Assembly: GCF_019443325.1 (NCBI RefSeq)
Contig: NZ_CP080383.1
Location: forward strand, 806,001-870,000
DNA: 64,000 bases
Direction of reading: 5' to 3'
Source of the DNA: Cryobacterium sp. PAMC25264
GTDB taxonomy: Bacteria; Actinomycetota; Actinomycetes; Actinomycetales; Microbacteriaceae
Shown here: positions 10,271-64,000 of the stretch, piece after piece
How positions within the stretch are numbered: the stretch's first letter is position 1
How the letters are laid out: every line of letters starts with the position of its first letter
The notes under the pieces: model-generated
What the model saw: the letters and a program-made list of their open reading frames with translations, nothing else
Database searches by the model: none
Told to the model about the DNA's origin: nothing
Made by a program: the position numbers and the translations under genes

Positions 10271-11220
10271 TGAGCCCCGACCTGCCCACCCCCTCCGCCG
10301 CACCGGTCCCGCCGGTGCCCACCCTCGACGACGTCGACAACACCCCGGCCGAGGCCAAGGTCAAGGCCGCCACGCTCATCGAGGCGCTGCCCTGGCTCAA
10401 GAAGTTCCACGACCAGATCATCGTGGTCAAGTTCGGCGGTAACGCCATGGTCAGCGAGGAACTGCAGCGCGCGTTCGCCGAGGACATGGTCTACCTGCGC
10501 TACGCGGGCATCCGCCCCGTCGTCGTGCACGGCGGCGGCCCTCAGATCTCGGCGATGCTCGCCCGGCTCGGCATCGAAAGCGAGTTCCGCGGCGGCTACC
10601 GGGTGACCACCCCCGAGGCCATGGACGTGGTGCGCATGGTGCTCACCGGCCAGATCAACCGCGATCTGGTCAGCCACATCAACGCGCACGGCCCGTTGGC
10701 CGCCGGCCTCAGCGGCGAAGACGCCGGCCTGTTCCGCGGGCGCCGCCGCGGTGTTGTCATCGACGGCGAAGAGGTCGACCTCGGCCTGGTCGGCGATGTC
10801 ATCGGCGTGGACCCCGAGGCCGTGCACGCGCAGTTGAACGCCGACCGCATCCCGGTCGTCTCCTCCATCGCGCCCGACACCGACCAGCCCGGCCAGTCCC
10901 TCAACGTGAACGCGGATGCCGCGGCCGCCGCCCTCGCCGTGTCGCTGAACGCGGCCAAGCTCGTGATCCTCACCGATGTGGCCGGGCTCTACAGCGACTG
11001 GCCCAACCGTGACTCCCTCGTGTCGGTCATCGACGTCGATGCCCTCCGCGCCCTGCTTCCCGATCTCGAATCGGGCATGATCCCCAAGATGACAGCCTGC
11101 CTGGACGCCGTCGAGGGTGGCGTCGCGAAAGCGGCGATCATCGACGGACGAGTGCCGCACTCGATCCTCGTCGAGATCTTCACCGGCAGCGGTATCGGTA
11201 CAGAGGTGGTTCCCGCATGA
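10270..11220 (+). CDS. argB: Acetylglutamate kinase
   Basis: ArgB (316 residues) phosphorylates N-acetylglutamate and is usually the arginine-feedback-controlled step. It has the amino acid kinase fold motifs: [27 protein letters not shown] and [20 protein letters not shown]. Near the end are [12 protein letters not shown] and the [15 protein letters not shown] substrate region. An N-terminal extension rich in Pro and Val precedes the kinase core. It starts at ATG 10270, sharing one base with the argJ stop, and overlaps argD by 4 bases. Confidence 0.95.
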
Positions 11221-20583: not shown

Positions 20584-21143
20584 TCCCCGGGCCCCGGCCG
20601 CTATGTGACCGGGAGGTTACGCGGGCATTGCGGGTGGATGTCGATTTGCGACACGCCCGGGATGCTCCCGGGATTGCGGGCCCCTGGGATCCCGCGTAAT
20701 GTCATCTCTTGTCACCCCACAGGTGCGGAAAGCCGAAGAGCTTCCCGGCCTCAAGCGGGACCACTTCCAAGTAACGGTATCGAATTCATTCGGACTACGG
20801 TGCTTGATGGCGTTTGATCCACTCCAATTCTGGAGTAGATCGTAACGACACGAAAACAGAATTACATCGAAGTGCCTCAGTGCAAAGGTCAATATGGCCG
20901 GCGGCTGGGTGCGTCCGATCCTTGAGAACTCAACAGCGTGCACAATGTCAAATGCCAAAAACCTCGGTCGTAGGGCTCCTTTCTAGGGAGTACCGCGGAA
21001 GAGATTCCTTTGGAAAACATTTAAACAACAAAGCAAGTCAGTAATGATTTGTTCTGTCAGTTTCAAACTTGCATCGTTGTCGCCTATTCCGGCGGCTCGG
21101 TGCACTAGATGTGACGCCAGCTTGCTGGTTAGTCAGCTAAACA
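20584..21143 (+). promoter_or_regulatory. rRNA operon promoter and leader region
   Basis: This 560-base stretch has no credible gene. A short hairpin (20656-20662 with 20666-20672, CCCGGGA/TCCCGGG) may end tyrS transcription. The sequence becomes AT-richer toward the rRNA. The 5' arm of the pre-16S processing stem lies at 20921-20941. I could not fix -35/-10 boxes with confidence. Confidence 0.6.
20921..20941 (+). other. 5' arm of pre-16S processing stem
   Basis: The stretch 20921-20941 pairs with 22846-22866 in the 16S-23S spacer. Eleven pairs around CAACAGCGTGC are perfect, with a few mismatches or wobbles at the outer end. The two arms flank the 16S gene, as expected for an RNase III cleavage stem. 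Confidence 0.7.
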
Positions 21144-26262
<5,119 letters not shown>

Positions 26263-26389
26263 ACACTCAGTTTGAATAAGCTGCTATGCGTCCACTATGT
26301 GGTTCTCGATGTACGGTCGAGAACAACGCCCACGCCACAGCGTGTGGGCTCTATAACTAAAAATATAGGTTCGATTCATCGAAAGATGT

Positions 26390-26506
26390 TTCGGCGGCTA
26401 TAGCAAGAGGGAAACGCCCGGTCACATTCCGAACCCGGAAGCTAAGACTCTTTGCGCCGATGGTACTGCAGGGGGGACCCTGTGGGAGAGTAGGACACCG
26501 CCGGAC
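26390..26506 (+). rRNA. rrf: 5S ribosomal RNA, copy 1
   Basis: About 117 bases, from TTCGGCGGCTATAGC to GACACCGCCGGAC. The terminal helix is formed by CGGCGG and CCGCCG. It holds the conserved loops GGGAAACGCCCGGTC and CCGAACCCGGAAGCTAAG. It differs from copy 2 only at the T/C of GGCTATAGC versus GGCCATAGC. It follows the 23S by about 130 bases. Confidence 0.93.
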
Positions 26507-26522
26507 TTAACTTAGAAACACC

Positions 26523-26554
26523 AGAAAAGCCACCCCGACCGGGGTGGCTTTTCT
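26523..26554 (+). terminator. Rho-independent terminator after 5S copy 1
   Basis: A perfect 14-bp stem (26523-26536 with 26541-26554) has a GACC loop, and the 3' arm ends in TTTTCT. It would end the rRNA operon before the second 5S copy. Confidence 0.85.
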
Positions 26555-26580
26555 GCGTTTAACCCCCACGCCGCTGCCCT

Positions 26581-26863
26581 CCGCGACCACGTCCCGGATG
26601 CCGCACCCCACCCCGGTCGAACCCGTCCAGACCCCGCAGGCCGACCTCCAAACCCCACCACAACGACCCGTCACCAGATCTCGACCAGCTCGACCAGCGA
26701 GGCGGGCGCGTCCCGCAAACATCCGCGACTGCGTCCTGGATGCCGCACCCCACGTTGGTCGAGCCCGTCGAGACCCGTAGGCCGGCCTCCGAGCCGCACC
26801 ACAAGGGCCCGTCACCGGGTCTCGACGAGCTCGACCAGCGAGGCGGGTGCGTTTCGCAGACAT
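26581..26863. repeat. Tandem 142-base repeat between the two 5S copies, with dispersed TCGAG motifs
   Basis: Two adjacent units, 26581-26722 and 26723-26863, align along their whole length and both start CCGCGAC. Each contains copies of the palindrome-like word related to GGTCGAGCTCGTCGAGACC that also occurs at 41.1 and 51.6 kb. I see no gene here, only short open frames created by the repeat. The rest of the gap (26864-27060) has nothing recognisable. Confidence 0.75.
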
Positions 26864-27060
26864 CAGCGATCTTGTCGGACGGGGCCGGCAACATCCGCGA
26901 CCTGTGAGCAAAGCACCGGAGCGGGCGCGTTTTTGGGGCCTCGCTGACCGATCGCGGGGGAGGCGGTGAGGGCCGTTGTCCTGTAGACTCGAGGGATCGA
27001 AGCTTGATGGTTCGAAACGACTTGATGGCCGGCACCTGGTGCCGGGGCATCGCACCTTGT

Positions 27061-51872: not shown

Positions 51873-51949
51873 CGGGCTGTAGCGCAGCTTGGTAGCGCAC
51901 CTGACTGGGGGTCAGGGGGTCGCAGGTTCAAATCCTGTCAGCCCGACCA
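51873..51949 (+). tRNA. tRNA-Pro (anticodon GGG)
   Basis: The acceptor stem is CGGGCTG/CAGCCCG. The anticodon arm CCTGA-CTGGGGG-TCAGG places GGG as anticodon. The T arm has GGTTCAAATCC, and CCA is encoded (51947-51949). It marks the boundary between the conserved chromosome and the recombinase-rich region. I found no second copy of its 3' end in the window that could be an attR. Confidence 0.95.
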
Positions 51950-51997
51950 AAGGGCCGTTCGCGAAACTCTTCACGAAACGGTCCGGTCGAAACAAAA

Positions 51998-52033
51998 AGA
52001 AATCGCTCCTGAGGATTCTCAGGAGCGATTTCT
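51998..52033. terminator. Tail hairpin of the first DDE-like unit
   Basis: A perfect 16-bp stem (51998-52013 with 52018-52033) with a GATT loop is preceded by a GGTCG...AAACAAAA stretch. It lies 150 bases beyond the DDE-like stop and can terminate that operon. A related hairpin follows the second DDE-like gene (57838-57867). Confidence 0.75.
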
Positions 52034-52183
52034 GGTTTAAGCGGTTCTCGCTGCGTCTTGCGGTCGCGATTCTTGAGTTGTGGTTGTGATCCTCGGTGGT
52101 AAATGCGTTTTCGTGCGCGCCGGATTGTCGCGAAAGCTGGGAGTTTCGCCCTCTCGGGCAGTATGCGGTTCGTGGAGGAACGG

Positions 52184-54109
52184 TTAGGTCTGTAGCGGTG
52201 GCCCACCGGTCTCGTCGGACACTGTCCGTTTTGCCTTGTCTGGCCGCGTGACGCCGGCCGGGAAGGTGTCTGTGTAGGGGTTGTGCCATTCGCGGTCTCG
52301 GCGGCGAATCGGGCCGACAACGGGTTCTCCGTTGATCCGCAACTTGGCATCGGCTTTGATCTTGTCGCTGATGAACGCCGCGATCTTCCGTAGGTTGAAG
52401 TTCGTGAGAAGCATGGTGACGATGACTTGAGCTGCTCCGAATCCGCGGACGCGGCGTCGGCTGGCAGATTCGACGTCCTCTGTTCCGCCGCTCTTGATCT
52501 GGTTATTCAGCGACTCGATGGAGTTTCTTGCATGGGTGTGGAATTCGTCCCATTCCTTGGTGCCGAATTCGAATGCTTGGGCGCTGCGCCGGTTCTTGGC
52601 GGTGTCAAATGAAACGGAGTGCTTGATGCAAATATCGTCTAGGAAGTCAGGAACGCTTTCTTCGTCAACGGCCGGTCGCACCTTCTTCGTGGCCGTCTTG
52701 AGAAGTTCTCGGAGCGGGCAGGTAACTGTCGGGCTTGGGCCAAGTGCTGGGCATCGCAGCACAGCGCGACCCTTCGCGTCGGGCTTCTCCTTCTGGTAAA
52801 GCTTGAACGCTGTGCGGCTCTTGATTCGCTCGCGGTAGGTTGCGGTGTCGATGACCTTGCCGAGCAGCTCTTTCGTCGCGTCCTGAAGCGGTTTGGGAGT
52901 TGCCGGACAATACGTGCCGCCTTCGATATACAGGGCTCCGTGGTCCCCGCCCTGATGGCCCAGTCGATCAACTCGATAGTCGGTGGAAGGCGTGAAGCCT
53001 TCCTTTAGTGCGTCGTCGTGGAGCCGTTCCGGAGTGGAATTGGCCCAGTACTGTTTGTCCGCATCTCCAACCCCTGGTTCCAAGCCAAGCATCTTGGTGG
53101 CGCGCATAAGTGAGACTGCCTCTTCAGCGACCAGGACATTGGGCAGACTCATCGTCGCGGCGACAGCAAGCGCAGGGAATCTCCGGGCTCCGGGTGCCTC
53201 AGAATCGACCCTCACGGCGATGTTGATTTCCCAGCCCCACTTATAGGTCAAGGAGCCGGCATTCTTGCCTGGCTCCGTGAGGTCGACCTCGCCCCGGCCG
53301 GCGTCTGTTCGTGGGCCGGTGGTCACGTGCCAGCCGGCAAATGCATCCACCGGGCCTGGCTTGAGGGTTCGTTTTTCCTCGACCTTTGCTTCTTCGGCGA
53401 CTCGTTTCGAGAGATTCTTTCTTGAGTATCCCTTCGTGGTGGGTGTTCCGACGTAGGTCTGGTCGAACGATATGTCGACCTTCTTTGACGCTCGACGAAC
53501 AGCGCGCGACTGTTCGTTGAAAGTCATGACGAGAAAGCGCTGGGTGAACTCATCGAGTCTGGCCTTCCGTTTCTCGGCCAGTTGGGTGTCGTGTGATCGG
53601 AGTATTGCTTGGATCTCGGTGTAGGTCTTGGAGTAGCGGCGTTCCTGAGGGAACGGGTCCATCAGGGCGTTCATGCGCTGGAAGGCACGATTTGTGTTGG
53701 CATACCAGCGGTTCTTCTCTCCGGTGTGGCCCACGAATGCTATCTGTGATGATTCAAGATCCAGGAGGTCTCGGGAAGTATCGCTGAGGCGAAACATGAA
53801 GAGGTCGCGCACATTCGTCAGGAACATCGAGGTGCCTTCCTTGGCGAGCAGAAGCATGCCGGTGAGGATGGCACGCTCCGAGATCAGGGACGGGCGGCCG
53901 CCAAGGCTGAAGGCCGCCGCATCTTCCTCGGACCACTCCCGTAGCTTTTCTAGGACGCCGGTCTTGCGGACACGGCCTTCCATCAGCGCTACAGTTTCGT
54001 CGTCTATGAGCTGATGGATACGGCCGCGGCCGATGACCTCTGCCTGGGTCATTCCACCGAGGTCGGGGTTATGGCCGGTGAAGCCGTAGTCGATGTCGCC
54101 GGCGCTCAT
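52184..54109 (-). CDS. DDE-transposase-like protein, long form
   Basis: This 641-residue protein has an N-terminal helical part with TGVLEKLREWSEEDAAAF and GMLLLAKEGTSMFLTNVRD. The core looks like an RNase-H/DDE domain. Candidate acidic residues are the Asp of ISFDQTYVGTP, the Asp of GVGDADKQYWANS and the Glu of HARNSIESLNNQIK. The strand-like WGWEINIAVRVDSEAPGARR lies between the first two. RRRVRGFGAAQVIVTMLLTN and FNLRKIAAF at the end resemble actinobacterial DDE transposases. A Cys-containing insert (TYCPATPKP, RCPALGPSPTVTCPLRE) is absent from the short paralog. It overlaps the integrase-like gene by 4 bases. No exact IS family is claimed. Confidence 0.65.
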   Translation of the reverse strand: MSAGDIDYGFTGHNPDLGGMTQAEVIGRGRIHQLIDDETVALMEGRVRKTGVLEKLREWSEEDAAAFSLGGRPSLISERAILTGMLLLAKEGTSMFLTNVRDLFMFRLSDTSRDLLDLESSQIAFVGHTGEKNRWYANTNRAFQRMNALMDPFPQERRYSKTYTEIQAILRSHDTQLAEKRKARLDEFTQRFLVMTFNEQSRAVRRASKKVDISFDQTYVGTPTTKGYSRKNLSKRVAEEAKVEEKRTLKPGPVDAFAGWHVTTGPRTDAGRGEVDLTEPGKNAGSLTYKWGWEINIAVRVDSEAPGARRFPALAVAATMSLPNVLVAEEAVSLMRATKMLGLEPGVGDADKQYWANSTPERLHDDALKEGFTPSTDYRVDRLGHQGGDHGALYIEGGTYCPATPKPLQDATKELLGKVIDTATYRERIKSRTAFKLYQKEKPDAKGRAVLRCPALGPSPTVTCPLRELLKTATKKVRPAVDEESVPDFLDDICIKHSVSFDTAKNRRSAQAFEFGTKEWDEFHTHARNSIESLNNQIKSGGTEDVESASRRRVRGFGAAQVIVTMLLTNFNLRKIAAFISDKIKADAKLRINGEPVVGPIRRRDREWHNPYTDTFPAGVTRPDKAKRTVSDETGGPPLQT

Positions 54110-55107
54110 CGGGAAATTTCCTCGCCGATGATGAGACCGGTGTAGAGGCCCAGGTCGAGTGGTTGTGCGTGTACGAGGTGCTTGTCGAGGCTTGCCGTTG
54201 CGGTGAAACCGGCGATCTTCATGAGAACCGGCAGCGGTAGCCCGTTGTCGATTTGAGTGATTACCCAGGAAGCACGGAGCCTTGAGACGGTAGCTCGAAT
54301 CCGACTTGGGTGCTCGGTCAGAAAGGTTTGGATGGCCCGCGGTCGATATTCATCGAGGCGCCAGCCCCTGAACACGAACTCGTCGGTTTCGGTGCGCCCA
54401 TCGAGGCTGCGCAGAAGGGTACGGTTCCACGGTGTCCGGACTGGCACAGTCCGCGCTCGGATGCCGGGAACGTGAACGAAGACTCGTCCCTCGATGATTT
54501 CAATGTCGCGGATACGCGTCTCGATGACCTCATCGGAGCGTAGGCCAGCGCCGCCGGCGAGGCCGAGAATTGCCAGTGCATTCTGCCGTTTGAAGTTGGT
54601 TGTGAGGCTAGCCGCCCAGCTGTGCAAAGCCGCGACCTCGGCGAGTGTGAAGGGGCGCCGTCGGGGATTGCGCTTCGGCGACGGTAAGCGTTTGATACTT
54701 GCGGTGCCGAGTGCATCCGTGATGGCGCCCAGCTGACGAACGACACCCCACCGGTGTATCTCTGAGTGCTTCGCCAGACGCTCCTGCAGAAAGAGATAGA
54801 CGTTGTTGTGGGTGTAGACGCGCTCGATTGTCAGTTCGGTGCCGGTGGCCGCCCACACCCACACATTGAAGCGGGCCGACATGGTCATGAGGCGCCGGAC
54901 AGTCTCGAAGGTGCGTGGCTGCATCCGTACAGCGGTAATGATCGTGAACTCGCGCACGGCGTTCCACTGCAGAGTGGAGAGCAATGGTCGATACCTGACG
55001 ATGACTTCCCAGACGTGATCGGGAAGGCCCGGGTCTAAGACCCGAAGGTGGGCGTACGTCGCGGAGTCGGCGAGGAAAGTGTCGTTGAGTCGGTCTTTTG
55101 AGGGCAT
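54106..55107 (-). CDS. Integrase-fold protein A, catalytic His and Tyr missing
   Basis: This 333-residue protein is similar to tyrosine recombinases: FTLAEVAALHSWA, GAGLRSDEVIETRIRDIEI (Arg I region) and VSRLRASWVITQIDNGLPLP (Arg II region). The HXXR histidine is Ser, the LGH histidine is replaced (AGFTATASLDKHL) and no Tyr lies at the nucleophile position; a Tyr follows 12 residues later (GLYTG). Strand transfer is therefore doubtful. I chose ATG 55107 (MPSKDRLNDTF) because its upstream 15-base word is shared with the second DDE-like gene. An in-frame ATG at 55167 would add 20 residues. Confidence 0.65.
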   Translation of the reverse strand: MPSKDRLNDTFLADSATYAHLRVLDPGLPDHVWEVIVRYRPLLSTLQWNAVREFTIITAVRMQPRTFETVRRLMTMSARFNVWVWAATGTELTIERVYTHNNVYLFLQERLAKHSEIHRWGVVRQLGAITDALGTASIKRLPSPKRNPRRRPFTLAEVAALHSWAASLTTNFKRQNALAILGLAGGAGLRSDEVIETRIRDIEIIEGRVFVHVPGIRARTVPVRTPWNRTLLRSLDGRTETDEFVFRGWRLDEYRPRAIQTFLTEHPSRIRATVSRLRASWVITQIDNGLPLPVLMKIAGFTATASLDKHLVHAQPLDLGLYTGLIIGEEISR

Positions 55108-55111
55108 GGAG

Positions 55112-55126
55112 AGTACGTGTGCGGCG
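55112..55126 (-). promoter_or_regulatory. Shared 15-base leader word, copy 1
   Basis: CGCCGCACACGTACT (minus strand) ends 4 bases before the integrase-A start codon. The identical word with identical spacing precedes the second DDE-like gene. GATCA words follow at about 65 and 88 bases upstream of the ATG. Confidence 0.6.
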
Positions 55127-55198
55127 GAATTGAGAGGCCAGTGGAGAAACTCACCCAGTCTGAACATCTCAGATCACGCACCAATACCAAATCCCTGA

Positions 55199-56101
55199 TC
55201 AAAGGAATTTATTTGAATCGATGGGGAAGTTCTTGACCCCCGATCTGGGGGCGAAAGTTCTTAACTTATCTAGCGCCGCCAAGTTCCGGAGCCCGGAGAT
55301 TCGCAACAATTCCTGGGGTGGTGTGCCACCGACAAGGTGCTCCAGGAGCCAAGTGGCGCGCATCCGGGCGGGTCGAACATCCAGCTCTGTTCGAGCGCGC
55401 AACAGGAAATCCGTGACTTGCCCGGATGTGGCGCTGTGACGGCCGGGGCGAAACATCCAGTCATCCCATTGAAGCTCACCGAGGATCCGTCGGAGAGGTC
55501 GTTCCCACGCTGGACTAAGCGGAACGACCCGGGACCGTCCCTCCCACACGATCACATGAATTGCTCCAGTGCGGTCTATGTCAGAGACGCGAACGCCGAG
55601 GATCTCTCTCGCAGCCAGGCCGGCCCCGAGCCCGAGCGTCAACAATGCAATGGCGTCTCGCCGCCGGTGCTCGGTTCCTTGCGAGGTCGCCCAGCTGTGC
55701 AGCGCTGCGACCTCGTGAGCGGAGTACGGTGCTGTCGGTGCTGAACGCGGGATCGGTCGCTGACGGTCGGTAAGGCCGATTGGGTTGAGCACTCCGGTGA
55801 TAAGCGTGAGGGTCGCCCGGTGAGCGGCCTTGCTGCCTGTGGTGTAGGCCTTCATGCCGAGATTGACGTACTCCTCGATGGTGGTGCGACGGAAGATACG
55901 CTCGCGGTCCAAAGGGGTTCCGCGGCTCTGCCAGCACCAGAGCACGAATGCGGCAGTGGCGGGTGAAAGGGATCGGGCGTCGCGGCCAGATCCCGTGGTG
56001 GCGTCGGCCACAGCTTCGGTGACGAACGGTCCGATCACGTCCCAGTAAGGAAGGGCATTGATGGGGCGGTAGTCGTACTCCGTCAGGTCAAGGTCGGTCA
56101 T
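55199..56101 (-). CDS. Integrase-fold protein B, degenerate active site
   Basis: This 300-residue protein is paralogous to protein A: EVAALHSWATSQGTEHRRRD, GLGAGLAAREILGVRVSDID and PARMRATWLLEHLVGGTPPQ. The Arg I position is displaced (GLAARE instead of GLRXXE). The second arginine remains. The His residues and the nucleophile Tyr are absent (ISGLRNLAALDKLRTFAPRS). It starts at ATG 56101, overlapping the upstream small gene by 4 bases; an in-frame ATG at 56224 is less likely. It may bind DNA without cutting it. Confidence 0.62.
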   Translation of the reverse strand: MTDLDLTEYDYRPINALPYWDVIGPFVTEAVADATTGSGRDARSLSPATAAFVLWCWQSRGTPLDRERIFRRTTIEEYVNLGMKAYTTGSKAAHRATLTLITGVLNPIGLTDRQRPIPRSAPTAPYSAHEVAALHSWATSQGTEHRRRDAIALLTLGLGAGLAAREILGVRVSDIDRTGAIHVIVWEGRSRVVPLSPAWERPLRRILGELQWDDWMFRPGRHSATSGQVTDFLLRARTELDVRPARMRATWLLEHLVGGTPPQELLRISGLRNLAALDKLRTFAPRSGVKNFPIDSNKFL

Positions 56102-56400
56102 GGCCGCACCATCACTCGTGGAACGGCATCGATGCGGCTCACCGGTGTCGTCTCGCGAGTTGTGAGCCAGACGCCCGGCACGTTCAGGTTGATCATCAAG
56201 ACCATGGGCTGACCAACGTGACATCGGACGATCTCCAGGAGGTCGATGTCCGCACCGTCCTGTCGCAGGCGGAGACTTGACTGTGCGACCGAGCTGGTCA
56301 CGCGGCGAAGCAATCTCCGCTCGAGGTCAATCCAGTACCGAGTCCCGGACACCGTCGTAACGACGTAGCAGCCGGAGGCGTCATCGGCTAACGAATCCAT
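56098..56400 (-). CDS. Small paralogous protein S1
   Basis: This 100-residue protein has the pattern GCYVVTTVSGTRYWIDLERR, then DLLEIVRCHVGQPMVLMINL and PGVWLTTRETTPVSRIDAVP. Proteins S2 and S3 next door share this W/Y-T-T, IDL, EIV-x-C-x-VG and SIDA pattern, so the three arose by tandem duplication. It starts at ATG 56400 and its stop overlaps integrase-like B. I do not recognise the family. Confidence 0.6.
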   Translation of the reverse strand: MDSLADDASGCYVVTTVSGTRYWIDLERRLLRRVTSSVAQSSLRLRQDGADIDLLEIVRCHVGQPMVLMINLNVPGVWLTTRETTPVSRIDAVPRVMVRP

Positions 56401-56439
56401 CGTGCACTCCTTTGCGGGTGGTGAGGCCCACGTCACCGG

Positions 56440-56727
56440 TCAATCGGAAGGCGCTGGGTCGATGCTTTGGATGGTGCTGGAGAGGTGCCAGTAATGTTCG
56501 AGGTAATCCACCTCGTCGGGGTCAGGACTCATTAGCCAATACCCGCGAGCACCGACTGTGCAGTGCACGATCTCGAGGAGGGGTCGCGGGCGATCGTTGA
56601 CGGTTGGGCTGGAGCTTTCACCGGGAATGCGGGTGACAGTCATAGCGTCCAGATCAAACCGGTGTGTTGACCCACGCGTGGCCACATTCCACAGCCCGCC
56701 TTCCTGGCCCGTCAGCGTCACTGCCAT
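56440..56727 (-). CDS. Small paralogous protein S2
   Basis: This 95-residue protein begins MAVTLTGQEGGLWNVATRGS, followed by THRFDLDAMTVTRIPG, RPLLEIVHCTVGARGYWLMS, and a C-terminus LEHYWHLSSTIQSIDPAP. It is clearly closer to S3 than to S1. Its first 74 bases overlap the S3 3' end in another frame, which could be natural or reflect another base error. Function unknown. Confidence 0.6.
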   Translation of the reverse strand: MAVTLTGQEGGLWNVATRGSTHRFDLDAMTVTRIPGESSSPTVNDRPRPLLEIVHCTVGARGYWLMSPDPDEVDYLEHYWHLSSTIQSIDPAPSD

Positions 56728-57076
56728 CAGTTCGATCCTCCCGGGTGGGCACCGCTTGGATGCTGACGACGCGGCTGGAGCGTTGCCAGAAGTGCTCGAC
56801 GGTCTCAATATCGCTGCCTTCGGGACTGAGGAGCCAATACCCGCGCCGTCCGACCCGGCACTCCACGATCTCCTTGAGTGGGCGGCTGGCACCGTTTCCC
56901 AGCGCAAAGTCGGGGGAATCGGGGAACCGAGACCGGTCAACTGTCGAGGCGTCCAAATCGATCCGATATGTCGAGTCCTCCGTGGTGATCAGCCAGCAGC
57001 CGCCTTCGATGCCCCAGATGAAATCTCGCCCTTGTACGGGTTCCTCACGCTCTGAGTCAGGAGTTCTAGAAACCAT
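56654..57076 (-). CDS. Small paralogous protein S3
   Basis: This 140-residue protein has an acidic N-terminus, then WGIEGGCWLITTEDSTYRID, RPLKEIVECRVGRRGYWLLS, VEHFWQRSSRVVSIQAVP and a 28-residue tail over the S2 start. It is the first gene of a minus-strand operon running S3-S2-S1-integrase B-integrase A-DDE-like. I chose ATG 57076 (MVSRTPDSE); longer in-frame starts exist up to 57310 but would cross the divergent promoter region. Confidence 0.58.
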   Translation of the reverse strand: MVSRTPDSEREEPVQGRDFIWGIEGGCWLITTEDSTYRIDLDASTVDRSRFPDSPDFALGNGASRPLKEIVECRVGRRGYWLLSPEGSDIETVEHFWQRSSRVVSIQAVPTREDRTDGSDADGPGRRAVECGHAWVNTPV

Positions 57077-57267
57077 TTCGCGCCCCGTGTCTTCCAGTTC
57101 TGGTGGATTCCGGTCGAGGGTCCGGCCCGGTGGAGCTCTACCGTACGAAAATCCTGGGCCGCAATCCGCCGACTCAGAGACAACTCCATCCCCGAGTCCG
57201 GACCGGCGGCCCAACGTCGAAACGTGACTTGAGTTCACGCCTATGCTGCCAGCGGAACGGATATCTG

Positions 57268-57756
57268 ATGGAGGTGGAAATGGTCGCGACAGAGGGGCGG
57301 ACGGATTCACGAAATCCGCTGAGGCCTCAATCAGGAGCGAGCATTCTCAAGCGGGCCATGGCCGCGAACCCACAGACGGTTTCGCCCCAACTTGCGCGCA
57401 GCCTGCAGGCAACCGAGAACGTGTGGCGGAACATAGCTGAGGAGAATGGTTTGTTGACCAGTGGCCAGGTTGCTGCGCTCTTAGGCTCAAATCCATCGAA
57501 CCGGAAGCTTGCGTCGAGGATCCGGGCCGCGCGGCAGTTGGCGGGAGTGGTCCGAGGCAACGCCGTCCTGTATCCGGGCTTCCAGTTCGATCAGGCTCGC
57601 CGGATGGTCCTTCCTGTGATGGGGGATCTCATCCGGTTAGCAGATGCGAATGGGTGGCGTGAGGAAGACCTGCTGCTTTGGTTGTGTGCGCCGACCACGA
57701 GCTTCGGCTCTGACGACCGGCCCGTCGACCACCTCCACCAGCCGGAGGCCGTCTAG
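57268..57756 (+). CDS. MbcA/ParS-type (DUF2384-like) antitoxin-like protein without toxin partner
   Basis: This protein has 162 residues from ATG 57268; ATG 57280 is also possible. It contains ENGLLTSGQVAALLGSNPSN, SRIRAARQLAGVVRGNAVLY, PGFQFD, and LLLWLCAPTTSFGSDDRPVD with HLHQPEAV at the end. This C-terminal pattern resembles actinobacterial antitoxin-like proteins that partner RES-domain toxins. No RES gene lies nearby. It is transcribed divergently from the S3 operon across 191 bases, so it could be that operon's regulator. The assignment rests on pattern memory only. Confidence 0.55.
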   Translation: MEVEMVATEGRTDSRNPLRPQSGASILKRAMAANPQTVSPQLARSLQATENVWRNIAEENGLLTSGQVAALLGSNPSNRKLASRIRAARQLAGVVRGNAVLYPGFQFDQARRMVLPVMGDLIRLADANGWREEDLLLWLCAPTTSFGSDDRPVDHLHQPEAV

Positions 57757-57837
57757 GCGGCTGCGAAGGATCAGTTTGAGGCTCAATGGTGACGCCCTGG
57801 GCTCGCCCCGACGCAACGATTGGTCGCGAAAACAAAA

Positions 57838-57867
57838 CATCGCTCCTGCGAACTCTCAGGAGCGATG
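57838..57867. terminator. Tail hairpin of the second DDE-like unit
   Basis: An 11-bp stem (57838-57848 with 57857-57867) shares CATCGCTCCTG-type sequence and the preceding AAACAAAA stretch with the first unit's hairpin. It lies 65 bases past the second DDE-like stop and 82 past the antitoxin-like gene, so it may serve both. Confidence 0.7.
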
Positions 57868-57931
57868 CCTTGATGCGACTATGCAGTAGTTGAAATGCGG
57901 GCCCCGGGCCCGCTGAAGGTTCCGGCAGCTA

Positions 57932-59449
57932 TCACCGCAACAGTTGGGCTGGCTGACCGGCGGTCGCGGGGACATCCGGCGCTGGCGCCTGTGTCATGTC
58001 ATCGTAATTTCCTACGCTCTCGAAGGAGGCGATCTCCCGCAGGTTGTAGTTGGTGAGCAGGACTGTCACGAAGACCTGTGCGGCGGCAAAACCGCGCACT
58101 GCACGGTGGGACGATTTGCCCAGATTCTCTCGATGGCGGTTGGTGATTCCAGCAGTGAAGTTCTCTGCGGAGCTGCGTGCGTGGCTATGGAAGGCGTCCC
58201 ATTCGGCCGTTCCATACACGATGCCCTCGTATGAGCGAGTGCCGTCGTGCTCCTGGAAGGACATCGGTTTCCGGGAATCGATCAAGGACCACCCGTCCGT
58301 TTTGACAGGGATGTTTCTCTGGTCTGCTCCTCGGTCAACCGAGGGGGTGAGTTTTGGGGGAAACGCGGATTTGCCGAAACCGTCGCTCGGTGATTTCGCC
58401 CAGTATTGTGAATCCGCATAGGCGACAGCAGGGCTGAGGCCCGTTCCTAGAGCCGCGCGCAGCAGCGATGCGGCCTCTTCGGGGGCTCCGATGTTGGGCA
58501 TGCTCAGCGTCGCACTGATTGCCAGCTCGGGGAATCGGGCTTCCCCGGGGCGTCTCGAGTCGACACGCACCGCGACGTTTGCGGCCCAGCCCCACCCGAA
58601 GTCGTGCCGGCCGTTATCCTTTCGGTCAATCCACGAACCCGCGAAGATCTCAACGGGACCGGGACGCAATGTGAGTGGATCGGCGTCACGTTCGGTGGCT
58701 ACCTTCTGCGCGAGGGTTTTCTTGAGGTATCCGCGGCGAGTGGGTGAGGCCACGAAGGAGTCCTCGATGGCGAGGTCGATGTGGCTGGAGGATTGGCGCA
58801 GTAGAGGCTGCTGCTGCATGAAGGTCATGTGCAAGAAGCCTTCTGTGAACTCGTTGAGCCGTGTCCGCATCCGCTTTTCCCGGTCGGTGTCGTGCGCGTC
58901 CAAGGCAGCCTGAACCTCGGTGTGGGTGGCAGCAGTTCTGCGGCCCTGCGGGAACGGATCCATCGGGGCCAGCAAGCGGTGCACGGCGCGGGACGTGCGG
59001 CTGCGCCACTGTCCTCTCTCACCGAGGAAGTTTCCGACAACGTTGGACGGTTCGGGGAGGTCCAGAAGCGCGCGGGATTCCGCGGAGAGCTGGTATTGGA
59101 ACACATCAGCCAGAGACCTAATCCAGAGGGGGCTGTGGTGCCCGGCAAGCAACAGAAAACCGACCAGGACGGCACGGTCTGAGATGGACGCTGAGCTTGT
59201 CCAGGCGCTGGTGGACCTCGCATCTTGCTGCCTCCACGCTGCGAGTTTGTCGAGGACACCGGTCTGGACGACCCTGGACTCGGCCAGCGCAACTTCCTCC
59301 GCGCTGAAGCAGTGGTGCACACCGGCGGGGGCCGTCGGGTGTGTCTTTATGGCTGGCACGAATTCGCTGTCAGCGGTCATGATCGCGAACGCGTTGACGT
59401 CGAGGCTGGTGTCGGACTTGAGAATGTCGGTGAATCGGTTGTTTGTCAT
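57932..59449 (-). CDS. DDE-transposase-like protein, short form with integrase-A-like start
   Basis: This 505-residue paralog of the long form has TGVLDKLAAWRQQDARSTSA, the candidate Asp of IDLAIEDSFVASP, WGWAANVAVRVDSRRPGEAR, Asp of VAYADSQYWAKS, and Glu of HARSSAENFTAG. It ends with VRGFAAAQVFVTVLLTNYNL. The Cys insert of the long form is missing. The first 23 residues (MTNNRFTDILKSDTSLDVNA...) look like the integrase-A start (MPSKDRLNDTFLADSAT). The next Met (MTADSEF, 59380) matches the long form's start. This suggests an in-frame fusion left by deletion. Confidence 0.63.
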   Translation of the reverse strand: MTNNRFTDILKSDTSLDVNAFAIMTADSEFVPAIKTHPTAPAGVHHCFSAEEVALAESRVVQTGVLDKLAAWRQQDARSTSAWTSSASISDRAVLVGFLLLAGHHSPLWIRSLADVFQYQLSAESRALLDLPEPSNVVGNFLGERGQWRSRTSRAVHRLLAPMDPFPQGRRTAATHTEVQAALDAHDTDREKRMRTRLNEFTEGFLHMTFMQQQPLLRQSSSHIDLAIEDSFVASPTRRGYLKKTLAQKVATERDADPLTLRPGPVEIFAGSWIDRKDNGRHDFGWGWAANVAVRVDSRRPGEARFPELAISATLSMPNIGAPEEAASLLRAALGTGLSPAVAYADSQYWAKSPSDGFGKSAFPPKLTPSVDRGADQRNIPVKTDGWSLIDSRKPMSFQEHDGTRSYEGIVYGTAEWDAFHSHARSSAENFTAGITNRHRENLGKSSHRAVRGFAAAQVFVTVLLTNYNLREIASFESVGNYDDMTQAPAPDVPATAGQPAQLLR

Positions 59450-59453
59450 GAAT

Positions 59454-59468
59454 AGTACGTGTGCGGCG
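59454..59468 (-). promoter_or_regulatory. Shared 15-base leader word, copy 2
   Basis: It is identical to 55112-55126 and again exactly 4 bases before a start codon. GATCA words lie about 67 and 87 bases upstream of the ATG. Beyond them is an A/T-rich patch (59550-59580). The rest of the 285-base gap to 59734 holds nothing I recognise. Confidence 0.6.
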
Positions 59469-59734
59469 CTTTTCGCTACTCACGGGCTATCGGCTCATTT
59501 TCGTCAGCTCGCGCTGATCATTCATCGCTTAAATGCTGATCAAGCCGCAAGAAAAAATTTTCAAGAATTTTTGATTTCCTGGTCATCAGTCAGGAACTGG
59601 AGCCACTGAGTTGTTGATCGGGCGTATTTTCGGAGGTGCGGAGCGCAGCTTGGGGTGGCAGTGAACCTGATTAGTTAGCCCGGTCCTGAGACTGTGGCCG
59701 GGCGTACCTGGCGTGAATTGAGGTCTTTGCACAT

Positions 59735-60556
59735 CTACTCGTCTTCACCGGGCGGATCGGTGAATCGCACCGACAGTCGGGATGCGTAAAACGCTTCCCA
59801 ATCCACGCCGACGGGGAAAAGCTCATCAGCAGACGCTCGCAGGGGGTCGCCGGTGATGGTGAAATCTCCCTCTTCGGCCAGGACGACCAGGGCTTCGCGG
59901 ATGGACTGTGGATCTGCCAGCAGACTTTGGGCTAGCTCATTGATAGTTGTCGACAATGAGTTGACGTAGTCGGGTTGTTGTGGCTTAAATAGCGCGAGGA
60001 TCTGCTGTGACATTTCTTGGTGTAGGTGGCCCCAGCGAAGCTGAGCCTCCGTCTCGCGGCGCGATTCGCTCAAGGGAAGGACTTCCTCCGGCAACGGAGC
60101 GAGCGGATTAATGGAGTACTGACTATTGGCCAGCACAATAACCCGGGCAGCTGCCATGAAGTCCAGTAGATCGGCAAGGGTATGAGGAGTTGCCAGGCCT
60201 AGGTGCGAGCTGAAGTCCGCGAACTCGGCAATCTGTCGTGTCCACGTCGCTCGCGCCTGAGCGTTGACGACCTCAGCGCTAAGGACTGAGCTTTCTCCCT
60301 GGAGGGGTGTGCCCTCGGAGTGTTCATCGAGCTGGCGGAGTTCTTCCTGCGTGTATTCCAACGGAGGTTCCCATACCTCTGAGGTGAGACCGTCAGCCGT
60401 GTAAGGACTGTCTCTGAGTTCTTCGTCAATTTCTGCAGACGTAGCCGTCCCCTTCGCCGCCAGAAAGGACAATATCGCGATGGCTGAACTCGGTAAAAAC
60501 CGTTGCCAGCCGCTCTGGACGTAGACGAGGTTGAAGAGTGCCCAGGTTGCCTTCAT
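59735..60556 (-). CDS. Unknown 273-residue protein
   Basis: It begins MKATWALFNLVYVQSGWQRF and then LPSSAIAILSFLAAKGTATS, which could be a small winged-helix start. The middle is helical with many Glu and Leu. The C-terminus has FTITGDPLRASADELFPVGV and WEAFYASRLSVRF. There is no signal peptide or membrane segment. I do not recognise it. It stands alone between the recombinase region and the nuclease gene. Confidence 0.6.
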   Translation of the reverse strand: MKATWALFNLVYVQSGWQRFLPSSAIAILSFLAAKGTATSAEIDEELRDSPYTADGLTSEVWEPPLEYTQEELRQLDEHSEGTPLQGESSVLSAEVVNAQARATWTRQIAEFADFSSHLGLATPHTLADLLDFMAAARVIVLANSQYSINPLAPLPEEVLPLSESRRETEAQLRWGHLHQEMSQQILALFKPQQPDYVNSLSTTINELAQSLLADPQSIREALVVLAEEGDFTITGDPLRASADELFPVGVDWEAFYASRLSVRFTDPPGEDE

Positions 60557-60652
60557 GCCGACAGAGTAACCCCCAGTTCCAGTCCGGGAACCTTCTCACC
60601 CTCTTCTCCGTTTGATCACGTGGGAAGGGCCGAGCGTGTGCGGGCCATGACG

Positions 60653-61528
60653 TCAAATTCCCTGAAGGTGAACCCCTGACATGTCCGACAGCTCGGCCCA
60701 GAGTTCACGGTTACCAGTGTCTTTCCGCACATCGGAGACCGGCACCAACACGTCGGCGTCGGACAGGGCCACCAGGTCAAGGTCGGTCAGGCCGGCGATA
60801 TCCCTAATGGGCACTTGAAACGTGCGGTACGGGCCCAACGGGGGAGGAGTGCCCGTGATGAAGGCTTGCGCGCGGAGTGTGTCGAGGTCGAGATCGGACA
60901 GTTGCGGCCTTTGATCCAAGACGAACCCGGCCGCTTGAAGGACCGTGGCACCGTCGATTGTTGTCGTCCACGCCGCGATCTTCCAGAACGACTGGGGGAT
61001 CCCGACACCGCGATACACCGGATCGTCGGTTGAAAGCACGGGTGCGGTGAAGACGCTGATGCGGTTTCTGTTCCTGCGTGCGTAGGTGAGGATATGGTCC
61101 TCAAGGCCGAGCCAGAGTATTTTCGATTGGTTGAATGCGCCGGCTTGCGGGGCGGCATTTGTGTAAGCGAAAGTGTCAACGTTGGCCTGCTGGGCGGTCG
61201 AGGCGTCGCCCCACACCGGGTCCCGACGTCGGACGAGATGGCCGCGGTCCAGGTCATTGTTCGCGTATACAGCCTCCCCGGTCTGCTCGTTGATGGGGAT
61301 GCGGGAGTCGAGGTGCCACTCATCACCACGGCTAACGTCGACAAGCTGGTCGCCGTCGATGTTCACGCCAGTCACGAGTGCGAGGCGACGGACGGGCTCT
61401 AGAAGGACGGTGAAGTGTGTGTAGGGCAGGTCCCGAATGACGGTTCCTTCGGCCGGCATGGGCATCGGCACCTGCAAATCGAGGAAATCGGCGTGGTAGC
61501 CACCGGGGAGAGGGGTCGCAGCATTCAT
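60653..61528 (-). CDS. DNA/RNA non-specific endonuclease (DRGH type)
   Basis: This 291-residue protein is of the NUC1/Serratia-nuclease family. The catalytic motif is NNDLDRGHLVRRRDP, in which His acts as base. The metal-ligand region FAYTNAAPQAGAFNQSKILW with LGLEDHILTYARRN matches the family's TN..PQ...N...W..LE. No signal peptide is visible, which is unusual for secreted members. Its C-terminal 90 residues (DLDLDTLRAQAFITG onward) go beyond the usual core. I chose ATG 61528; an in-frame start at 61612 is possible. Confidence 0.82.
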   Translation of the reverse strand: MNAATPLPGGYHADFLDLQVPMPMPAEGTVIRDLPYTHFTVLLEPVRRLALVTGVNIDGDQLVDVSRGDEWHLDSRIPINEQTGEAVYANNDLDRGHLVRRRDPVWGDASTAQQANVDTFAYTNAAPQAGAFNQSKILWLGLEDHILTYARRNRNRISVFTAPVLSTDDPVYRGVGIPQSFWKIAAWTTTIDGATVLQAAGFVLDQRPQLSDLDLDTLRAQAFITGTPPPLGPYRTFQVPIRDIAGLTDLDLVALSDADVLVPVSDVRKDTGNRELWAELSDMSGVHLQGI

Positions 61529-61617
61529 GCCGAGAGCTAAGCAGCCGCAACTGACATTTGCGCCTCTGAAAGGTGTCGCACAACTAACCGTGAGCACTGA
61601 ACTTCCGGTCACAGGTT

Positions 61618-61720
61618 ATGCGACGTAGTTACGAGAACCGGCCTGCCTCGAGATTCAGGGATTTTCAGGGGAAATCCAGGTCAGTGCGATGCGACGTCTT
61701 GTATCCGTAGGGTTACGAGA
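61618..61720. repeat. Imperfect direct repeat in the nuclease-permease gap
   Basis: ATGCGACGT and GTTACGAGA occur one base apart at 61618-61636 and again at 61689-61697 and 61712-61720, separated by 14 bases. The gap 61529-61923 shows no gene. Its role is unknown; it may be a regulatory or recombination site. Confidence 0.4.
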
Positions 61721-61923
61721 CGCGTGACTACAAGCTCTGTGCCACCGGGTCGATGTGCCACAGAGCGATCACAGAGCACCGCCACGGACCGATCAACTCC
61801 ACACCGGTGGAGGCCGGCAGGTCCACCTCATGAGGGCAGCGGGCGAAGGCCCGTTGTCGTGTAAACGTGCCAGCGCTGCCACGGATGGACTTTCCTACCC
61901 CGAAGATCTGCTCTACTGGGAAC

Positions 61924-63075
61924 ATGGGGTCGTCGGGACGGCGGCAAAGCCGTCGAGCTGTTGTTGTTGCGACGGTCACGCCCCTCGCGTCGATCCTCGG
62001 ATCTGGGCTGCTGATCATCGTTCCTGTGTTGGAACGCACCCTTGGTGCACTGGCCGTTTTCGGAGCGGTCGCGATCTGCGCGGTCGCCTGGCTGATCGGG
62101 ACAGTCATCCGCCACAATGTGCTCGTCGTTGAACCTCTAAAGGGGGCCGGCAGCCTCGACCGGGCGACGCTACTGCTGGGGCGCATCGCTGACGCCACCA
62201 TCGTCGTCGCGTATATCATCTCGGTCGCGCTGTATCTGCGGATCATGGCTCAATACCTTGTGAGGTTTTTTGCATCGAGCGCACCGGACTTCCTCGAACC
62301 GTTGATCGCGTGCGTAGCGGTGGCGCTGATTGTCGCGCTCGGGATACTCCGTGGTTTCAGGGGACTAGAGAGACTAGATCGCGTCTCTGTCGTCGCCGTC
62401 CTCCTTCTCACCTTTGTTCTCGGTGCGGTGCTACTGTTCCACGACGGCTCGAGCCTGGTTGGTGGCGACCTGACAATGCCACCGGTGCCACGCATGAATC
62501 CGCTAGAAATCCTCCTGGTGCTCGGCGGGATCGTGATCACTGTCCAGGGCTTTGAGACCGTCCGCTACCTGGGCGACCAGTATGACGCCGTCGCGAGAGT
62601 GCGCGCATCACGGGTTGCGCAGATTATCTCGGCGTTCATCTACATCGGCTTCGTCGCCGTCGCGACCCCCGTCATGGGACTCGGCACCCCCGCAGGTGCC
62701 GACAGCACACTGTTGGACATCACCACCCGCATCGCACCATGGCTCGCACTCCCGCTGGTACTGTCCGCGGTTCTCAGCCAGTTCAGCGCGGCGATCGCGG
62801 ATACTGCCGCTGCCGACGGAAACCTTCGAGGCCTGAGCCGATGGTTCCATGGTCCACGGCCATACCTGATCAGTGGAGCAGCCGCTATCGCGATCGCCGC
62901 AACGGTGCCAACTTTTACGATCGTCGCCGTCGCCTCCCGCGCATTCGCTGCGTATTACGCAATTGAGGCCGTGATCGCGATGCGCACCTCGAACGGCTTC
63001 GCGCGCAAGAGTTTTTACGCTGTACTCGCGCTCCTCTTGGTCGCGATCGCACTGTTCGCCTTGCCTGCGTCATAG
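61924..63075 (+). CDS. APC-superfamily-like membrane transporter
   Basis: This 383-residue protein has about ten membrane segments. The first contains LASILGSGLLIIVPVLERTL, recalling the GSG helix break of amino acid permeases. Others include ADATIVVAYIISVALYLRIM, LIACVAVALIVALGILRGF, LVLGGIVITVQGFETVRYLG and ISAFIYIGFVAVATPVMGLG. It is shorter than typical APC members. The substrate is unknown. I chose ATG 61924. Confidence 0.65.
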   Translation: MGSSGRRQSRRAVVVATVTPLASILGSGLLIIVPVLERTLGALAVFGAVAICAVAWLIGTVIRHNVLVVEPLKGAGSLDRATLLLGRIADATIVVAYIISVALYLRIMAQYLVRFFASSAPDFLEPLIACVAVALIVALGILRGFRGLERLDRVSVVAVLLLTFVLGAVLLFHDGSSLVGGDLTMPPVPRMNPLEILLVLGGIVITVQGFETVRYLGDQYDAVARVRASRVAQIISAFIYIGFVAVATPVMGLGTPAGADSTLLDITTRIAPWLALPLVLSAVLSQFSAAIADTAAADGNLRGLSRWFHGPRPYLISGAAAIAIAATVPTFTIVAVASRAFAAYYAIEAVIAMRTSNGFARKSFYAVLALLLVAIALFALPAS

Positions 63076-63415
63076 GCCTTGATCTCGCAGTTCGCGCCCA
63101 GCGCAGACATGCGTGACGCGAGTGCGGATCATCCTCACGCTGCAGGCAATCAGTGACGCACTCAGCTCGGCAGTTAGCACGACATCATTTCATCTCGGAA
63201 TTCTGGCGCCTCCGATGCGGCCGGAGTGCGAAATTCGGCTGGGCCACGCGAGCCGTCGTTATGGCCGTACCGCCGAGAAGCATCGATTCCTTGATGGCCG
63301 CCCGTAGGCAGTTTTCAGTGTCCGCCGGCGCTCCTTCATCTGGACGCCATCTGGGTGTGCCGTTTCGATTGGTAAGACGTCTCGCCCGGTGCTCGTCGTG
63401 TCGTCAGGAATGACC
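63076..63415. other. 340-base gap with no recognised feature
   Basis: It lies between the permease and the converging GAF-ANTAR gene. Short open frames exist but have no coding character. I see no tRNA, strong hairpin or repeat. Confidence 0.6.
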
Positions 63416-64000
63416 TCAGCGATGTATGCCGGCGGCGATTTTCTGGACTGTCAGGTGCCGGTTGCTGATCTGGTCAGCGACTGTCCTGATCGTCATGTTT
63501 CGGTCACGGGCATACTTTCGGAGAAGAAGGAACGCCTCATCCATATTCATCGATAGCTCGTTGGCGACCACTCCCTTGGCTTGTTCGATCAGAATGCGGC
63601 TGTCTAGTGCTCGGTGAAGTTGTTCCTCGATAAGATGGCCTTCACGGATTACTCGCTCTTGAAGTATCCCGATTGTCGCGACGTCGGCCAGAGCTTGGGC
63701 GACTGCAGCGTCTCGTTCGCTCACCTCGCCCGCTGCGGTCCCGAAAAGGTTCATGGTTCCTATGACTTTGGCGTGAAGCTTCAACGGAGTCGCCAGAACA
63801 GATCTGAAACCAGCCGCCGATGCGGCCTTCTGAAAAAGGGGCCATTTCTCAGACATCGATATTTCTTCGACGGAGACCGCTTTGCCGGAACGGAAACAAT
63901 CGATGCATGGTCCGTCGCTGGCGTCCAATTGCATCATTTCAACGAATTCCGCTGCTTCACTCGTCGAGGTCATGAGTTGTAAGTCCCCATTCCCATCGAC
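63416..64000 (-). CDS. GAF-ANTAR regulator (N-terminus cut by window edge)
   Basis: The visible part (194 residues) has a GAF domain, with VEMMQLDASDGPCIDCFRSG and ATPLKLHAKVIGTMNLFG. It ends in an ANTAR RNA-binding domain (SRILIEQAKGVVANELSMNM and EAFLLLRKYARDRNMTIRTV). The frame stays open to base 64000 through VDGNGDLQL before the first Met, and related proteins have more GAF sequence there, so the start is missing. ANTAR proteins act as antiterminators by binding paired hairpins. The GAF ligand is unknown. Confidence 0.85.
   Translation of the reverse strand, partial: VDGNGDLQLMTSTSEAAEFVEMMQLDASDGPCIDCFRSGKAVSVEEISMSEKWPLFQKAASAAGFRSVLATPLKLHAKVIGTMNLFGTAAGEVSERDAAVAQALADVATIGILQERVIREGHLIEEQLHRALDSRILIEQAKGVVANELSMNMDEAFLLLRKYARDRNMTIRTVADQISNRHLTVQKIAAGIHR

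What the first reader, a model, noticed from the sequence alone, without database searches (positions are those of the whole stretch)
51985..59560. Candidate undescribed mobile module: two DDE-like paralogs with two integrase-fold partners
Directly after tRNA-Pro, a minus-strand operon runs S3-S2-S1-integrase B-integrase A-DDE-like (641 aa), with overlaps of 4 bases at S1/integrase B and integrase A/DDE-like. A second DDE-like paralog (505 aa) lies upstream. A DDE-type catalytic core encoded with two active-site-depleted integrase-fold proteins is a combination I cannot match to a named transposon family. Inference: the integrase-like proteins may give DNA binding or target choice while the DDE-like protein does the chemistry.
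Basis: partly seen in the sequence, partly recalled or inferred. Interest (0 to 1): 0.85.

Follow-up and report, generated by a model that had tools for sequence, protein, structure and literature searches.

The report
Transposon that homes to tRNA genes
A large bacterial jumping element sits exactly at the end of a tRNA gene; it carries one cut-and-join enzyme and two disabled recombinases that may find the target, a combination not found described in the papers searched here.

Summary
The 641-aa protein is a Tn5-like DDE transposase: its model matches Tn5 best, and D216, D351, E532 are conserved. IntA has a tyrosine-recombinase fold; neither IntA nor IntB keeps the catalytic set. These genes are the tRNA-side end of a 50,917-bp element (window 51952 to 102868, beyond the window). 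It has GGGC(C/T)GTT inverted-repeat ends and a 6-bp target duplication, ACCAAA, starting at the tRNA-Pro discriminator base; four same-genus genomes have the site without it. Fifteen of 19 tested left ends have a right end with their own 5-7-bp duplication, in tRNA-Pro, Met, Thr and Leu genes. In 16 delimited elements a DDE-type gene occurs in 16 and IntA/IntB-type genes in 15. Of 14 checked, 13 hold no other tyrosine recombinase (G023b holds two). So this is a tRNA-homing DDE transposon with two dead recombinase-fold partners. Target choice by IntA/IntB, perhaps by reading the T-arm, is inferred. Nearest precedent: Tn6022, whose inactivated recombinase TnsF selects comM; that is a Tn7-type system with TnsC and TniQ, and no TniQ lies in the 14 elements checked. 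Eight searches of open papers found no description of this family.

The parts
51873..51949 (+). tRNA-Pro(ggg), the target gene; its sequence is left whole by the insertion
   Evidence: ARAGORN
51946..51951 (+). left copy of the 6-bp target-site duplication ACCAAA, starting at the discriminator base A73; right copy at G000 908869-908874, outside the window
51952..51981 (+). left end of the element: terminal inverted repeat GGGCCGTTCGCGAAAC plus a second copy of the motif (TTCACGAAAC); the inverted right end CTTTCGTGAACAGCCC ends at G000 908868
51998..52033 (.). perfect 16-bp-stem hairpin just inside the left end, terminator-like; a 13-25-bp-stem hairpin lies within the first 95 bp of all 16 delimited elements
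52184..54109 (-). DDE transposase, 641 aa, Tn5/IS4-like; D216, D351, E532, R528(3)E(6)K539; Cys4 insert C401/C453/C464/C494
54106..55167 (-). IntA, tyrosine-recombinase fold without the catalytic set; probable start at 55107 (333 aa)
55199..56101 (-). IntB, second tyrosine-recombinase-like protein without the catalytic set (longest ORF reaches 56224)
56098..56436 (-). S1, small protein in 12 of 16 delimited elements; probable start at 56400; weak DUF5818-like match below cut-off
56440..56727 (-). S2, paralog of S3 (47% over about 90 aa); S2/S3-type genes in 8 of 16 delimited elements
56654..57076 (-). S3, paralog of S2 (start uncertain)
57244..57756 (+). divergent small ORF, weak Rv2175c_C-like match below cut-off; relatives in 8 of 16 delimited elements
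57932..59449 (-). 505-aa DDE paralog without the Cys4 insert and with Glu at position 216; probably impaired; on its 3' side a left-end-like hairpin at 57839-57866
59735..60556 (-). cargo: DUF6042 protein
60653..61612 (-). cargo: DNA/RNA non-specific endonuclease family protein
51952..64000 (.). the part of the 50,917-bp element that lies in the window (ends at G000 908868 = window coordinate 102868)

Best explanation
This is the tRNA-side end of a cut-and-paste DDE transposon family that homes to the 3' ends of tRNA genes. Supported by comparison: the element has terminal inverted repeats and is flanked by a 5-7-bp target duplication that starts at the discriminator base; its transposase end faces the tRNA, whose sequence stays whole; it carries a terminator-like hairpin just inside that end; and several elements can stack at one site. 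Inferred: the Tn5-like DDE protein cuts and joins the ends. IntA and IntB, tyrosine-recombinase-like proteins without the catalytic set, bind the target as a pair, perhaps at the T-arm about 12 bp before the cut, and bring the transposase there. S1 and a divergent gene outside this window (helicase-associated-domain-like by eye) are accessory.
Against: No experiment. Nothing shows that IntA or IntB binds DNA. A 5-7-bp repeat between inverted repeats could also be a tyrosine-recombinase overlap region, and 23 of 39 IntA relatives keep a Tyr there. One delimited element, G023b, holds two further tyrosine-recombinase genes at 572343-572861 and 574232-574783. Duplication length varies (5, 6, 7). 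Four of the 19 tested left ends had no right end in the DNA held (G016, G015, G026, G063), nor did distant ones outside the 19 (G038, G006, G037). In the control with other loci's duplications, 11 hits turned up in the 19 searches, at least one of them a real second element (G008). The G057 right end is weak (3 mismatches). Foldseek alone gave no match at E 0.001 or better (Tn5 prob 0.94, E 0.006). The T-arm argument is post hoc and rests on three cases.
Confidence: 0.75

Rival explanations
1. The same transposon, but IntA and IntB are not target selectors: they bind the element's own ends or promoters, as accessory synapsis factors or as repressors like the phage recombinase-fold regulators SroF, MrpR and YopR, and the DDE protein itself reads the tRNA end.
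Against: Two distinct copies travel with the DDE gene across the near family, and a recombinase-like ORF lies beside it in 12 of 16 distant Actinomycetes loci. Tn6022 shows that an inactive recombinase can be a selector.
Confidence: 0.25
2. The element is really a tyrosine-recombinase island: the 5-7-bp repeat is the crossover region, the inverted ends are core sites, and IntA, or an active enzyme acting in trans, does the strand exchange.
For: Inverted repeats around a 6-bp spacer resemble recombinase core sites; tRNA 3' ends are classic sites for such islands, and ordinary islands with longer tRNA repeats use this same tRNA-Pro in relatives; 23 of 39 IntA relatives keep Tyr; G023b holds two more tyrosine-recombinase genes.
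Against: Box II His is absent in 39 of 39 IntA; IntB lacks box I Arg and box II His in 13 of 13; the window lineage has His at the Tyr position yet shows elements with intact ends and duplications. The spacer differs in sequence and length between related elements but is repeated on both sides, as in transposition. 13 of 14 checked elements hold no other PF00589 match. The DDE triad is conserved instead.
Confidence: 0.1
3. A chance pile-up in an integration hot spot: a decaying island beside tRNA-Pro that happens to contain a transposase and integrase remnants, moved by resident IS21 or IS256 copies or by an ordinary island.
For: The G000 element contains IS21-like and IS256-like genes, and a broken ordinary integrase lies just outside the right end. 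Many relatives hold only fragments.
Against: Precise ends with duplication, sites without the element, the same ends and operon in several genera and at several tRNA types; the IS genes are not among the 14 most widely shared gene families printed.
Confidence: 0.03

Closest known systems
Tn6022 (Tn7-like) with TnsF, and Tsy (Faure et al. 2023, PMC10293859; passages read)
   Same: A DDE transposon in which an inactivated tyrosine-recombinase protein selects one conserved gene; target duplications are made.
   Different: [quoted passage not shown] here no TniQ lies in the 14 elements checked, the transposase is Tn5-like, there are two recombinase-like partners, and the target is the tRNA 3' end.
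Tn5/IS50 and the IS4-type transposases
   Same: Best fold match; the E532 region has the R(3)E(6)K spacing (signature recalled; compared).
   Different: Tn5 is a small composite element with low target specificity, 19-bp ends, 9-bp duplication and no recombinase-fold partners (recalled).
Dada DNA transposons of eukaryotes (PMC3706591; passages read)
   Same: DDE transposase, 6-7-bp duplications, insertion in tRNA genes, tandem copies at one target.
   Different: Eukaryotic, distantly similar to MuDR, hAT, P, Kolobok and IS256, 4.7-11 kb, sub-terminal rather than terminal inverted repeats, inserts inside the RNA gene; no recombinase-fold partner in the passages read.
SE elements of Vibrio (PMC9345347; passages and discussion read)
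   Same: Several-gene mobility operon with two recombinase-type proteins, inverted ends, 6 bp at the junction.
   Different: SE IntA and IntB keep the catalytic R-H-R-Y motif; the extra 6 bp comes from the donor and is not a target duplication; the four core genes named there are intA, CDS2, intB and CDS4, with no Pfam hit for CDS2 and CDS4.
Casposons (PMC4046053; search listing only)
   Same: Terminal inverted repeats, target duplications and tRNA 3'-end targets (recalled).
   Different: Their integrase is Cas1 and they encode a DNA polymerase (recalled).

Membership tests
DDE (RNase-H fold) transposases, Tn5/IS4-like | D, D, E triad in order, E on a helix in an R(3)E(6)K setting | tested here: met
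   D216, D351, E532, R528, K539: 46-48 of 48 near and 21-22 of 22 far members at each; E532 on a helix in the model
DDE (RNase-H fold) transposases, Tn5/IS4-like | RNase-H-like core | tested here: met
   [not shown]
Named IS4 or other Pfam/NCBIfam transposase family | Curated-model match above cut-off | tested here: not met
   No transposase family for the 641-aa or 505-aa protein in Pfam, NCBIfam or PHROGs at E up to 1; of ten distant relatives one passes PF01609 (23.6 vs 23 bits). ISfinder was not available
Cut-and-paste transposon | Terminal inverted repeats, fixed-place target duplication, and relatives without the element | tested here: met
   actual movement not testable here
Tyrosine recombinases (active) | R..K..HxxR..H/W..Y catalytic set | tested here: not met
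   IntA box II His 0 of 39, box I Arg 25 of 39, box II Arg 33 of 39, Tyr 23 of 39; IntB without box I Arg and box II His in 13 of 13
Tyrosine recombinases (fold) | Core-binding plus catalytic-domain fold | tested here: met
   [not shown]
Tn7-like transposons | TniQ/TnsD in the element | tested here: not met
   PF06527 absent from 10 of 12 genomes and outside the elements in the other two
Tn7-like transposons | TnsC-type AAA+ regulator as a core gene | tested here: inconclusive
   The 14 most widely shared gene families printed are, by their coordinates, DDE, Int, S1, S2/S3, the two divergent genes, and ORFs overlapping these; rarer families were not annotated
SE elements | Active IntA/IntB, junction 6 bp from the donor | tested here: not met
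   Inactive sets; the repeats are the same on both sides and in G000 equal the sequence of relatives without the element
Tyrosine-integrase genomic islands at tRNA genes | Long direct repeat of the tRNA 3' end at both ends | tested here: not met
   Only 5-7 bp repeated at this family's ends; the longer tRNA repeats seen near some lie at the ends of neighbouring islands, by my reading

The most novel reading that the evidence does not exclude
A separate class of site-specific DNA transposons: a single Tn5-type DDE transposase aimed by a pair of catalytically dead tyrosine recombinases that read the tRNA T-arm as a near-palindromic binding site, without AAA+ ATPase, TniQ or guide RNA. It is present across Actinomycetes, its lineages are tied to different tRNA isoacceptors, and it can carry tens of kilobases safely to a tRNA 3' end.
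Probability: 0.5. Interest if true: 0.88.

Novelty: new variant of a known kind. Interest (0 to 1): 0.8.

Why it matters
It would be a second case of inactivated tyrosine recombinases turned into aiming parts for a DDE transposase, in a simpler machine than Tn7: one transposase, two recombinase-like proteins and a few small ones. Because the target is the conserved tRNA 3' end and the tRNA survives, such a system could deliver long DNA to safe, predictable sites. It would also explain a set of large actinobacterial islands at tRNA genes whose mover is mostly named 'hypothetical protein' beside an 'integrase' (names seen).

Tried and rejected
Considered and dropped: (1) tRNA-Pro island with a long att repeat: longer repeats exist nearby in relatives but lie at other islands' ends. 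(2) G000 925344 as right end: inverted-repeat-like but without the duplication; replaced by 908868. (3) G044 1464286-1466203 as a small element: flanks differ. (4) A PDB sequence hit for the DDE profile: none at E <= 1. (5) Known families: no Pfam, NCBIfam or PHROGs transposase match for the DDE proteins; PADLOC was not run. (6) Phage carriage: no match in the phage records; six weak matches in Streptomyces plasmids, identity 23-25%. (7) Prior description: eight full-text searches of open-access PMC papers found none; subscription papers and preprints are mostly not held. (8) A wish to say that no element holds another recombinase: not borne out for G023b, perhaps a nested element; odds left as they were, since 13 of 14 hold none.

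Rows left out of counts: G061 (left end mis-parsed), G038, G006, G037 (no right end found in the DNA held), G054, G000-Leu and G044 (no GGG start), G041 and G065 (no whole tRNA in the stretch) were but not among the 19. G028 (84 kb, perhaps composite) was left out of the 16 elements. G021 and G057 were not. Some genomes appear both as named contigs and as unnamed handles; removes exact duplicates only and counts pieces of broken genes apart.
Full report
What is there. tRNA-Pro(ggg) ends at 51949. Downstream and convergent lie the DDE gene (52184-54109), IntA, IntB, S1, S2 and S3, then a divergent small ORF and a second DDE-like ORF of 505 aa (57932-59449). IntA/DDE overlap by 4 bases, and so do S1/IntB if IntB starts at 56101. 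The window is G000 806001-870000 of a 4.06-Mb single-contig chromosome, almost certainly Cryobacterium: G019, of the same genus, has a contig of the same length and match as one titled C. levicorallinum.

Ends and duplication. Beside the tRNA the element begins GGGCCGTTCGCGAAACTCTTCACGAAAC. An inverted copy, CTTTCGTGAACAGCCC, ends at G000 908868, and both ends are flanked by ACCAAA. The element is 50,917 bp long, so most of it lies beyond the window. The right ACCAAA is followed by TGTCCCGGAAACTC, which is what follows tRNA-Pro in G005, G032, G039 and G044. With the flanks joined, the G000 site aligns across the junction to all four; G032 and G044 also match further downstream (84-85% over 834-840 bp). 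These sites are free of this element; some of them carry ordinary islands with a longer tRNA repeat a few to 25 kb downstream.

Generality. Of 19 left ends tested, 15 have a right end with their own duplication in the DNA held; shuffled end motifs gave 0.005-0.26 hits per search, and the other loci's duplications gave 11 hits in the 19 searches, at least one of them a real second element in G008. Duplications are ACCAAA, ACATTT, ACAAAA, ACCGCA, ACAGAA, ACCGGA, ACCAGA, ACAGTG (6 bp), ACAGAAT and ACCGAAC (7), ACAGC and ACACA (5); each starts at the discriminator base. Targets are tRNA-Pro ggg and cgg, Met, Thr and Leu. G057 is weak (3 mismatches at the right end), and G028 (84 kb) may be composite. 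Elements stack: in G023 two follow each other with ACCGCA between and after them; in G008 a second element is followed by a third left end. All 16 delimited elements carry a 13-25-bp-stem hairpin within the first 95 bp. In at least six (G000, G019, G021, G025, G059, G060, by eye) a terminator-like hairpin follows the right duplication; in G000 it is the one that follows the tRNA in relatives. The element thus goes between the tRNA and that hairpin and brings one of its own.

Core genes. In 16 delimited elements DDE-type genes occur in 16 (in G021 only a fragment, in G008a in two frames), IntA/IntB-type in 15 (not in the 7-kb G021 remnant), S1 in 12, and a divergent gene, outside this window, in 12; by eye the last looks like a helicase-associated-domain protein, which I did not test with a profile. 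The rest of the 14 most shared families are, by coordinates, S2/S3, the small divergent ORF and ORFs overlapping these genes. I checked recombinases in 14 of the 16 elements (12 genomes): 13 hold no PF00589 match other than IntA/IntB; G023b holds two more, at 572343-572861 and 574232-574783, perhaps a nested element. Neither PF07508 nor TniQ falls inside any of the 14. DDE, IntA and IntB distances over 14 loci co-vary (r 0.96, 0.87, 0.89; no permutation of 2000 reached the value; related genomes, so not independent).

Spread. In the genus sample 30 of 57 genomes, the window's own included, have a match, many of them fragments. In a class sample 17 of 394 have one, the window's own included. 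For the other 16, a tRNA lies within the fetched flank in 14 and a recombinase-like ORF in 12. Over all loci scanned, 46 of 65 DDE 3' pieces with 700 bp of downstream DNA have a convergent tRNA within 700 bp, 45 of them at 186-333 bp; L047, L030 and L032 are counted twice there, so 45 of 62 genes. Of the 17 others 12 are fragments, one is the 505-aa copy, two are tandem copies (L039, L012), and two, L029 and L048, lie beside displaced 3' halves of tRNA-Pro and tRNA-Ser (read by eye), so the 3' half may be enough as target.

How it probably works. The DDE protein pairs the inverted ends, cuts the element out and joins it to staggered cuts 5-7 bp apart, one at the discriminator base (inferred from anatomy and fold). 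What fixes that place is the open step. Acceptor stems of the targets differ, but the T-arm at -20 to -11 is nearly constant, as in tRNAs generally. More telling, in the tRNA-Pro lineage the three other isoacceptors with delimited elements (Pro-cgg, Met, Thr) all have GCAGGTTCAARTCCTGT, which by my reading only 4-6 of the 45-54 tRNAs of those genomes have (tRNA totals). If targets were random among tRNAs the product is about 0.0008, but the motif was chosen after seeing the targets. The T-arm is a near-palindrome of the size a recombinase-fold pair can hold, so I propose that IntA/IntB read it and recruit the transposase (confidence about 0.6 for selector, lower for T-arm). Rivals: they bind the element's ends or promoters, as recombinase-fold regulators do (SroF, MrpR, YopR among the fold matches), or the DDE protein reads the target itself.

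Comparison and novelty. Tn6022 uses TnsF, an inactivated tyrosine recombinase, to select comM (PMC10293859, passages), so the principle has a precedent; but Tn6022 is Tn7-type with TnsC and TniQ, and its target and transposase differ. Dada elements of eukaryotes also hit tRNA genes with 6-7-bp duplications (PMC3706591, passages) but belong to another DDE group. SE elements have active recombinases (PMC9345347, passages and discussion). Eight searches of open papers found no description of this family; that is not proof of absence. I therefore call it a new variant of a known kind, with a fair chance of being a class of its own.

Noticed in passing
L006 (G000 C1:1508000-1526000), 8181-11689: A third, distant DDE relative (about 25% identity) with a recombinase-like ORF beside tRNA-Leu(gag) in the same genome; its ends were not found.
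   Followed up: partly
window 55112-55126 and 59454-59468: The same 15-base motif (plus strand AGTACGTGTGCGGCG) lies 5 bases upstream of the probable start of IntA (55107) and of the 505-aa DDE gene (59449); perhaps a promoter or binding site (seen by eye).
   Followed up: no
window 59735-61612 and G000 869416-908868: Cargo: DUF6042 protein, non-specific nuclease family protein, GAF-ANTAR proteins, Asp-Al_Ex permease, aminotransferase, DUF347 proteins, histidine kinase, OLD-like protein, and IS21- and IS256-type passengers (about 20 larger ORFs scanned, not all).
   Followed up: partly
tRNA-Pro(ggg) locus of G005, G032, G039, G044, G026: The same tRNA appears also to be a site of ordinary islands, with repeats of part of the tRNA 3' half downstream; one such island seems to separate DDE elements in G008.
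   Followed up: partly
G023 C1:572343-574783, inside element G023b: Two ordinary-looking tyrosine-recombinase genes inside one delimited element, perhaps a nested element.
   Followed up: no
L135 (G021 C8), right flank of the element at 33674: The flank reads ACCAAA followed by CCAAATGTCCC, an extra copy of CCAAA: perhaps a footprint of an earlier insertion.
   Followed up: no
L227 (Streptomyces plasmid NZ_CP108257.1): A distant DDE relative overlapped by a 359-aa upstream ORF, both 'hypothetical', a few kb from cas1e/cas2e on a linear plasmid.
   Followed up: no
window 20001-27000: A stretch of low G+C (0.52-0.59 against about 0.69 around it), probably another acquired region.
   Followed up: no
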